From positions 1 to 64,000 of the forward strand of contig JAJCYD010000047.1 of the NCBI GenBank assembly GCA_029263125.1: a stretch of 64,000 nucleotides of DNA, given 5' to 3'. Under the pieces are notes generated by a model, which had not been told where the DNA came from, ran no database searches, and saw only the letters and a program-made list of their open reading frames with translations. Both the position numbers and the translations under genes were made by a program. This stretch comes from Solirubrobacteraceae bacterium. GTDB taxonomy: Bacteria > Actinomycetota > Thermoleophilia > Solirubrobacterales > Solirubrobacteraceae. Each line of letters opens with the position of its first letter. Within the stretch, counting starts at the first letter, position 1. This document shows positions 24,619 through 26,480 of this stretch, piece after piece.

Positions 24619-25038
24619 ATGGCCCGCCGCCCCCTGATCGCCGCCTGCCTCACCGTTGCGGCGCTCGTCTCGGCCGGATGCGGCTCGCAGGGCATCAAGC
24701 TCGCCAGCAGCAATCCGCAGCGCGAAGGGGCGGTCCTGTTCGCCGAGCGCTGCGGGTCCTGTCACACGCTGAGCGCCGCCGGGACGCAGGGCTCGACGAC
24801 CGACGTTTCCAACAGCGAGAACGTCGACGGCCCGAACTTCGACACGCGTGTCGAGAAGTTCGACGACATCGTCTACGCGATCCAAAACGGCGGGTTCTCC
24901 GGCGCGATCATGCCCGAGAACATCGCCACCGGCGACGAGATGAAGGCGATCGCGGCATTCGTCGCCAAGTACGCCGGCACGGACATCGGCTCGCGCAAGC
25001 CGGCCGGTGGGACGGCGCCCGCGAGCGGAACGCCCTAG
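24619..25038 (+). CDS. Class I cytochrome c lipoprotein
   Basis: A 139-residue protein with a lipobox (VSAGC, C21), a single haem c site (CGSCH, residues 45-49) and a candidate axial Met in AIMPENI. The middle carries the usual helices (GPNFDTRVEKFDDIVYAIQNGG). It should shuttle electrons on the outer face of the membrane. The TATCAT box at 24602-24607 lies 11 nt before the ATG, and the cupredoxin diverges 36 nt away, so the two are probably partners. Its TAG stop lies inside the left arm of the inverted repeat that follows. Confidence 0.88.
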   Translation: MARRPLIAACLTVAALVSAGCGSQGIKLASSNPQREGAVLFAERCGSCHTLSAAGTQGSTTDVSNSENVDGPNFDTRVEKFDDIVYAIQNGGFSGAIMPENIATGDEMKAIAAFVAKYAGTDIGSRKPAGGTAPASGTP

Positions 25039-25201
25039 TGGGTCGTCCAGGAACGTTGTGCCTGAAACGCCGGGATGCCGGCGCTGCCAGGCAAGGACGC
25101 AGGATCGAAGGTGTGGCTCTGGCACATCGAGATCCGAGGACGCCGCATGGCGGTGATCGGCGCCCGTCGTTTCGGGCGCAACGTTTCTGGATGGCCCACT
25201 A
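25036..25201 (+). repeat. Long imperfect inverted repeat with 39-nt arms
   Basis: Arms at 25036-25074 and 25163-25201 match at 33 of 39 positions. Five of the six differences are transitions that would form G-U pairs if the plus strand is transcribed, so 38 of 39 positions can pair in RNA. The 88-nt interior holds a smaller hairpin (GGATC...GATCC with GGTGTG/CACATC inside). The left arm starts with the cytochrome c stop codon and the right arm ends 22 nt before serS. The ends read TA-GTGGG and CCCAC-TA, which would also fit a small transposon-derived element at a TA target. No serine T-box motif was seen. Confidence 0.7.
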
Positions 25202-25223
25202 GCCCCGTCCACGCGGCAGCGCT

Positions 25224-26480
25224 GTGCTTGACCTCAGGCTGATCCGCCGCGAGCCCGAGGCGGTTCGAGCGGCGCTCGCGCGCCGTGGCCCCGACACCGC
25301 CGCGCGAGTTGACGCCGTCGTCGATCTCGACACGCGCTGGCGGGAGGCGACGCAGGCCGCCGAGGGGTTGCGAGCCGAGCAGAAGGCCGCATCCGGAGAG
25401 CTGGCCGCGGGTAAGCGCGAGGGTCGCGACGTCGCGCCTCAGCTCGCGCGGCTGAAGGAGCTCTCCGCTGAGGTCAAGGCGCTCGGCGAGCGCGCGAAGG
25501 CGGCCGAGGCCGAGCTGCAGGACGTCCTCTCAACGCTGCCCAACCTCCCCGATCCGACGGCCGCCGAGCCCGACGACGAGGTCCTGCGATGCGTCGGCGA
25601 GGCCACGAAGACCGGTCGCGAGCACCAGCAGCTGGCCGGCGAGCGGATCGACATGGAGCGCGGCGCCCGACTGTCGGGGGCGCGCTTTGCCTACCTGCGC
25701 GGCGACCTCGTGATGCTCGAGCTGGCGCTCGTGCAATGGACGCTGACGCTGCTGCGCGGCCATGGCTTCGAACCGGTGATCCCGCCGGTGCTCGTGCGCG
25801 AGCAGGCCCTGTTCGGCACGGGCTTTCTCCCCGACACCGAGCAGCAGATCTATCACCTGCCCGCCGACGACCTGTACCTCGTCGGCACGAGCGAGGTGGC
25901 GCTCGCCTCGCTGCACGCCGGCGAGATCCTCGACGCCGCCGACCTGCCGCTGCGCTACGCGGGCTTCTCGCCGTGCTTCCGGCGCGAGGCCGGCGCCGGC
26001 GGCAAGGACACGGGCGGCATCTTCCGCGTGCATCAGTTCGACAAGGTCGAGATGTTCTCGTTCGTGCAACCCGATCGCGGCGTCGCGGAGCACGAGCGGC
26101 TGCTGGCGATCGAGGAGGAGATCATGGTGGCTCTCGAGATCCCCTATCGCGTCGTCAACATCGCCGTCGACGACCTTGGCGCCAGCGCCGCGAAGAAGTA
26201 CGACATCGAGGCCTGGCTGCCCGGGCAGGGCCGCTACCGGGAGCTGACGTCGACCTCGAACACGACCGACTTCCAGGCGCGGCGGCTGGAGATCCGCGTG
26301 CGCCCGGGCGCCGAGAAGGCAAAGCCCGAGACGCTGCACACGCTCAACGGCACGGCCGTCGCGGTGGGCCGCACGATGATCGCGCTGCTGGAGAACGGCC
26401 AGCGCGAGGACGGCTCGGTCGGGCTGCCGGCGGTGCTGACGCCCTACGGCGCGCCGTCGGAGCTGCCGCCGGCGAACTGA
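25224..26480 (+). CDS. serS: Seryl-tRNA synthetase
   Basis: A 418-residue class II synthetase that charges tRNA-Ser. The N-terminal coiled-coil arm spans about residues 30-100. Motif 2 is visible as FSPCFRREAGAGGKDTGGIFRVHQFDKVEMF. Motif 3 appears as LHTLNGTAVAVGRTMIALLEN. The GTG start follows the inverted-repeat element closely. Its 3' end overlaps the converging STAS gene by 37 bases. Three tRNA-Ser genes lie elsewhere in the window. Confidence 0.96.
   Translation: MLDLRLIRREPEAVRAALARRGPDTAARVDAVVDLDTRWREATQAAEGLRAEQKAASGELAAGKREGRDVAPQLARLKELSAEVKALGERAKAAEAELQDVLSTLPNLPDPTAAEPDDEVLRCVGEATKTGREHQQLAGERIDMERGARLSGARFAYLRGDLVMLELALVQWTLTLLRGHGFEPVIPPVLVREQALFGTGFLPDTEQQIYHLPADDLYLVGTSEVALASLHAGEILDAADLPLRYAGFSPCFRREAGAGGKDTGGIFRVHQFDKVEMFSFVQPDRGVAEHERLLAIEEEIMVALEIPYRVVNIAVDDLGASAAKKYDIEAWLPGQGRYRELTSTSNTTDFQARRLEIRVRPGAEKAKPETLHTLNGTAVAVGRTMIALLENGQREDGSVGLPAVLTPYGAPSELPPAN

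What the first reader, a model, noticed from the sequence alone, without database searches (positions are those of the whole stretch)
25036..25201. Long hairpin element between cytochrome c and serS with wobble-preserving differences
Two 39-nt arms match at 33 positions. All five transitions among the six mismatches keep base pairing as G-U in plus-strand RNA, leaving one true mismatch. By chance each would do so half the time. The interior folds again. The element ends 22 nt before the serS GTG, so it could be a structured leader or a processing or termination element. The TA-flanked ends also allow a MITE-like origin.
Basis: partly seen in the sequence, partly recalled or inferred. Interest (0 to 1): 0.65.

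Follow-up and report, generated by a model that had tools for sequence, protein, structure and literature searches.

The report
Jumping hairpin with conserved RNA core
The hairpin between the cytochrome c and serS genes is one copy of a small mobile DNA element, probably moved by IS630-type transposases, and its hundreds of relatives in actinobacteria keep a strand-specific, covarying RNA fold that matches no Rfam family and whose job is unknown.

Summary
The element is 25038-25199 (162 bp), flanked by TA inside CTAG. It is not a conserved serS leader: five congeners lack it, and other copies have clean empty sites with a single CTAG. It is a dispersed, non-autonomous, MITE-like element. IS630-family transposons with CTAG ends and matching inverted repeats occur in relatives, one in the same genus.

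It is more than an ordinary MITE. In 46 aligned copies length stays near 162 bp, and a 93-nt core (AAGGACGCAG, variable hairpin, CGAGGACGC, then GGTGATC) is more conserved than the terminal repeats. The core matches 127 of 232 genomes of the order, occurs in other actinobacterial classes, and is joined to many different terminal repeats. The wobble signal generalises: arm transitions keep G-U on one strand 658 times against 136 A-C; that strand's RNA is more stable in 136 of 143 copies; 40 of 57 pairs show compensatory change; two G-U pairs are nearly invariant. No Rfam family matches.

Best reading: a RUP-like, IS630-mobilised element carrying a new structured RNA of unknown function. Movement is well supported indirectly; RNA-level constraint is strongly supported; transcription and the RNA's role are untested.

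The parts
25035..25038 (.). Left CTAG target site; TA at 25036-25037 is one copy of the 2-bp duplication; TAG is also the stop codon of the upstream cytochrome c gene
   Evidence: Sequence; 30 of 50 copies have CTA on the left (counted); 11 of 11 young copies in G057 are CTA/TAG; empty sites with a single CTAG
25038..25199 (+). The 162-bp element, GTGGG...CCCAC, one long imperfect palindrome; + is the strand whose RNA is the stable rod
   Evidence: 159-165 bp in 46 aligned copies
25038..25069 (+). Left arm / terminal inverted repeat, GTGGGTCGTCCAGGAACGTTG...
   Evidence: 25/32 identical (18 of first 20) to the end of the IS630 remnant L141 in the same genus and to L131
25168..25199 (-). Right arm / terminal inverted repeat (reverse complement GTGGGCCATCCAGAAACGTTG...)
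25074..25166 (+). Conserved structured core, 93 nt, covariance model R1
   Evidence: 100.2 bits, E 8.7e-18, the only significant match in the window; conserved order-wide
25093..25102 (+). Conserved internal-loop motif AAGGACGCAG (left side)
   Evidence: Near-invariant columns in A1
25103..25134 (+). Variable but covarying apical hairpin
   Evidence: Helix 7: all 5 pairs with compensatory changes
25136..25143 (+). Conserved internal-loop motif GAGGACGC (right side)
   Evidence: Near-invariant columns in A1
25152..25158 (+). GGTGATC: bulged A at 25156 next to conserved G-U pairs (G25081 with U25157, G25083 with U25154)
   Evidence: G-U in 26/27 and 24/27 sequences
25200..25202 (.). Right TA duplication and G of the target CTAG
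24619..25038 (+). Upstream cytochrome c gene (CGSCHT haem motif), whose TAG stop overlaps the element's left end
   Evidence: Sequence and ORF table
25224..26480 (+). Downstream serS (GTG start)
   Evidence: ORF table; nearly abuts the cytochrome c gene in five congeners that lack the element

Best explanation
This is one copy of a short, non-autonomous mobile element. As DNA it carries IS630-type ends and is most likely cut and pasted in trans by IS630-family transposases into CTAG, duplicating TA; here it landed in the stop codon of the cytochrome c gene and regenerated TAG. As RNA, one strand folds into a 160-nt rod with a conserved core: two purine-rich internal-loop strands (AAGGACGCAG and GAGGACGC), an apical hairpin free to vary in sequence, and a bulged GGTGATC motif with fixed G-U pairs. 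The core has been kept while the terminal repeats diverged or were exchanged, so selection acts on the folded RNA of lineages that spread. The likeliest role is binding of a conserved cellular or transposon protein by the internal-loop core, helping the element persist or spread. Shown: copy number, TA/CTAG insertion, empty sites, matching IS630 ends, covariation, strand asymmetry. Inferred: that IS630 moves it, that the RNA is made, and what it binds.
For: Copies: 4 near-full plus partial copies in its own genome; 25 of 61 relatives by BLAST. Insertion: five congeners lack it at cyt c-serS; single-CTAG empty sites for two other copies; two tandem copies share one CTAG. Partners: 1.19-kb IS630 elements (NF033545, E 1.2e-54) with CTAG ends and related repeats; an IS630 remnant in sister species G004 ending CTAGTGGGTCGTCCAGGATTG. 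RNA: 40 of 57 pairs with compensatory change, covariation 0.533 against 0.187 shuffled, 0 of 500; G-U 321 against A-C 37 in 50 copies, 658 against 136 in 143 copies, + strand more stable in 136 of 143 copies and 29 of 34 arm clusters. Spread: 127 of 232 genomes, 40 of 54 genera of the order.
Against: No transcription data. No consistent placement relative to gene direction: left flank strand about even (the strand caller is crude and misread serS itself). Few recent changes within one young subfamily show no G-U bias (4 and 4), so constraint is not seen on every copy. Copies are related, so counts are not independent. No intact autonomous partner was found in the window's own genome, only a distant IS630 (29% identity). 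Terminal-repeat symmetry alone can create covariation in the arms, though not the G-U bias or the changes in the apical hairpin.
Confidence: 0.72

Rival explanations
1. Plain IS630-derived MITE with no RNA function: the arms covary because they are terminal repeats, and the palindrome is kept symmetric by template switching.
For: Mobile hallmarks are clear; arms-only mini-elements of about 46-66 bp exist in G001 and G004, so the core is not needed in every derivative.
Against: Strand-specific G-U excess, conserved unpaired motifs and fixed G-U pairs, covariation of the apical hairpin outside the terminal repeats, near-constant length. Template switching would erase G-U mismatches, not favour them.
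Confidence: 0.15
2. Cis-acting element that stabilises, processes or terminates transcripts of neighbouring genes (ERIC- or Correia-like).
For: Very stable hairpin; sits at the stop codon or between co-directional genes; precedent in ERIC, where orientation matters, and in Correia (PMC2229807, PMC10969869).
Against: Copies lie in both orientations relative to genes; no T tract or terminator pattern; absent from this locus in five congeners. Any cis effect is probably incidental.
Confidence: 0.2
3. The G-U bias is mutational: the element is transcribed from its own promoter and the + strand is preferentially deaminated.
For: G-U arises from C to T and A to G on the + strand (follows from the pair counts).
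Against: Bias of roughly 5:1 to 9:1 is large for a mutational asymmetry (general knowledge); two G-U pairs are fixed family-wide; no promoter-like site found (sigma-70 consensus only); young copies show no bias (small sample).
Confidence: 0.08
4. The fold matters as single-stranded DNA, with G-T in place of G-U, for a strand-specific recombination or replication step, as in attC sites.
For: G-T is also better tolerated than A-C in DNA hairpins (general knowledge); strand asymmetry; conserved unpaired bases.
Against: TA duplication at CTAG with IS630-type ends points to double-strand cut-and-paste by a DDE transposase; a link to a tyrosine recombinase or Y1 transposase was not searched for.
Confidence: 0.07

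Closest known systems
RUP (repeat unit of pneumococcus) with IS630-Spn1 (PMC2229807)
   Same: Short non-autonomous intergenic repeat, TA at the termini, ends resembling an IS630-family element thought to mobilise it in trans
   Different: RUP is 107 bp in one species with no reported internal structure/function signature; here a near-constant 162 bp, palindromic throughout, with a conserved one-strand RNA core across an order and beyond
ERIC / RU-1 (127 bp, enterobacteria)
   Same: Near-full-length palindrome, TA termini, dispersed, stable RNA fold; orientation-dependent effect on mRNA reported
   Different: No autonomous partner is named for it in the review read (PMC2229807); here IS630 partners share the ends; the conserved internal-loop motifs are those of this family (ERIC sequence itself was not compared)
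Correia / NEMIS (Neisseria)
   Same: Small TIR element with TA termini; transcripts fold and are processed by RNase III (PMC10969869)
   Different: Different hosts and ends; no sequence comparison was made here
IS630-family insertion sequences
   Same: CTAG/TA target and matching terminal repeats
   Different: Element has no transposase gene and its core is not in the IS630 copies examined
REPIN / RAYT
   Same: Dispersed hairpins mobilised in trans
   Different: REPs are 20-40 bp palindromes with GTAG or CGTC tags (PMC3733652); here TA duplication and IS630-type ends

Membership tests
IS630-mobilised MITE (RUP-like) | Dispersed, non-coding, too short for a transposase | tested here: met
   162 bp
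IS630-mobilised MITE (RUP-like) | TA target duplication (CTAG preferred) | tested here: met
   Empty sites with one CTAG; CTA/TAG flanks in 11 of 11 young copies
IS630-mobilised MITE (RUP-like) | Terminal repeats shared with an IS630-family element in the same or a related genome | tested here: met
   18 of first 20 bases (25/32) with L141 in the same genus and with L131; transposase family
IS630-mobilised MITE (RUP-like) | Mobilised by that transposase | not testable with these tools
   Needs a transposition assay
ERIC-type palindromic repeat | Full-length palindrome with TA termini | tested here: met
ERIC-type palindromic repeat | Sequence homology to the ERIC consensus | not tested
   The ERIC consensus was not fetched; resemblance is one of form only
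Known Rfam RNA family | Match above the curated threshold | tested here: not met
   None at the element (gathering) or (E up to 5)
serS leader (T-box or other conserved cis-regulator) | Conserved upstream of serS in relatives | tested here: not met
   Absent in G001, G002, G003, G004, G006; no T-box match
Intrinsic terminator | GC-rich hairpin followed by a T tract | tested here: not met
   none; the sequence after the hairpin is TAGCCCC

The most novel reading that the evidence does not exclude
A family of structured RNAs, not in Rfam and spread over several actinobacterial classes, travels as a mobile passenger: the RNA core is the constant part and is combined with terminal repeats recognised by different transposases, and its RNA takes part in its own spread, for example by binding a transposase or a host protein.
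Probability: 0.3. Interest if true: 0.85.

Novelty: new variant of a known kind. Interest (0 to 1): 0.62.

Why it matters
Bacterial MITEs are usually defined by their ends alone. Here the ends diverge while an RNA-level structure is kept over a whole order, with hundreds of natural variants that make the fold and its partner directly testable. It also suggests a general test (G-U against A-C in palindrome arms) for telling RNA-constrained mobile palindromes from DNA-only ones.

Tried and rejected
Conserved serS leader: rejected, absent in five congeners. Terminator or sigma-70 promoter: none found. Known RNA: no Rfam match at the element even at E up to 5. REPIN: rejected on ends and target. 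Element derived internally from IS630: the two-motif core is not in the IS630 copies examined, only single chance AGGACGC words. Virus-borne: one viral-contig hit, without the palindrome, probably chance. Orientation relative to genes by codon-phase GC: no clear pattern; the caller misreads serS, so it is not used as evidence. A first look at young-copy mutations included mis-oriented copies and was redone.

Full report
Observation. From 25036, 33 of 39 arm positions match, five of six differences are transitions and all five leave G-U on the plus strand. The plus-strand RNA of 25038-25199 is a single rod of -116 kcal/mol (z -10.7, 0 of 200 shuffles); the minus strand makes a different, weaker fold at -77.4. 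The left TAG is the stop codon of the cytochrome c gene (24619-25038).

A dispersed element. The window's genome (3.75 Mb) holds three further near-full copies at 80-85% identity, more divergent copies and end fragments, six by covariance model. In 61 related genomes, 25 have a match; the nearest copies, in sister species G004, are 95% identical over the element, while the cyt c-serS region of G004 is only about 72% identical. That suggests recent spread between species.

Insertion. Ends are CTA|GTGG...CCAC|TAG. Most copies keep TA on each side; all 11 well-oriented young copies in G057 have CTA and TAG and are 161 bp. Two tandem copies in G057 share a single CTAG. Comparing filled and empty loci: at cyt c-serS, G001, G002, G003, G004 and G006 have the genes nearly abutting and no element; for copy L071 the empty site in G003 reads CCTAGC with one CTAG, and for L080 the empty site in G003 reads CGCTAGGT. 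So the insertion duplicates TA within CTAG, often the stop codon of a gene.

Partner. In G028 and G009 the same pattern delimits 1193-1196 bp elements with CTAG at both ends and repeats such as GTGGGCCTTCTCGGAATGTTTGACCGG and GTGGGTCGGCCATGAACGTTTGACCGG. Their proteins are IS630 transposases (NF033545, E 1.2e-54 and 3.7e-41; DDE_3). In the same genus, G004 carries a truncated relative (57% identity, E 6.1e-96) ending CTAGTGGGTCGTCCAGGATTG, 18 of 20 bases identical to the window element's left end. Mobilisation in trans by IS630 is therefore the best explanation, as proposed for RUP and IS630-Spn1 (PMC2229807). It was not tested directly, and the window's own genome has only a distant IS630.

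A conserved RNA core. Forty-six copies from several genera align at 159-165 bp. Terminal repeats diverge strongly, but a 93-nt core keeps AAGGACGCAG, CGAGGACGC and GGTGATC almost unchanged, with an apical hairpin that changes sequence and keeps pairing. On 27 representatives, 92.9% of cells pair, 40 of 57 pairs have compensatory change, and the covariation score is 0.533 against 0.187 in shuffles (0 of 500) and 0.07-0.13 when slid. Two G-U pairs are kept in 26 and 24 of 27. Arm symmetry could come from terminal-repeat recognition; the apical hairpin could not.

Strand asymmetry. In copies oriented by the core alone, arm transitions keep G-U on the plus strand 321 times and give A-C 37 times (50 copies); in 143 copies, 658 and 136. 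The plus-strand RNA is more stable in 50 of 50 and 136 of 143 copies, and in 29 of 34 clusters of different arms. Copies are related, so these are not independent trials, but the bias recurs in clusters with unrelated ends. In one young subfamily the few changes show no bias (4 and 4), which would fit selection on the lineages that spread rather than on every copy; the sample is small.

Range. The model matches 127 of 232 genomes (40 of 54 genera) of the order and 11 of 396 sampled across the phylum. Contig lengths identify G004 with AVDCRST_MAG67 and G002 with C12_metabat.bin.40, both Solirubrobacteraceae, so the window's host is a member of that group. The core is combined with many different terminal repeats and in some places has shorter arms.

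What it does. No Rfam family matches at the element, no terminator or sigma-70 promoter pattern was found, and no reliable preference relative to gene direction was seen. The rod with a conserved internal loop looks like a protein-binding RNA; this is inference. At this locus the insertion is lineage-specific and any effect on cyt c or serS is probably incidental.

Verdict. Same kind as RUP and ERIC by form and, for RUP, by likely mobilisation; different in carrying a near-invariant-length, strand-specific RNA core over an order and beyond. New variant of a known kind.

Noticed in passing
L137, L138, L139, L140 (G004, G001): Arms-only mini-elements of roughly 46-66 bp with the same ends and no core, mostly at CTAG; deletion derivatives or a separate minimal mobile form.
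   Followed up: partly
L190, L262, L237 (Thermoleophilia MAG FR_37 and a relative): Nested or tandem core elements: a copy with GAGCTCG ends sits inside the AAGGACGC motif of another copy that has GCAGGC(C/T)GTTGAAG ends; in L190 left halves are repeated.
   Followed up: partly
L143, L144, L145 (G001): A second IS630 group in the genus with CTAGTGGACCCATCC / CTAGTGGACGTGTCC ends; one copy (L144) sits directly against the end of a core-family element.
   Followed up: partly
L084, L085 (G002): Core-family elements of 214-215 bp with about 52 extra bases (GGGCACCGCCGGCC...GGCCGGTGGTC) inserted in the apical part at the same place.
   Followed up: no
L198, L253, L271: Core hairpins with short arms ending CTGACGAG / CCGTCAG, not flanked by TA on both sides: possibly a second mobile type or stand-alone RNA loci.
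   Followed up: no
G004:C136 and C122 against window 25038-25199: Elements 95% identical between species whose orthologous genes are only about 72% identical, suggesting recent transfer of the element between species.
   Followed up: no
G089 contigs (L299-L306): Many copies lie at contig ends, so assembly breaks at this repeat and copy numbers in fragmented genomes are underestimates.
   Followed up: no
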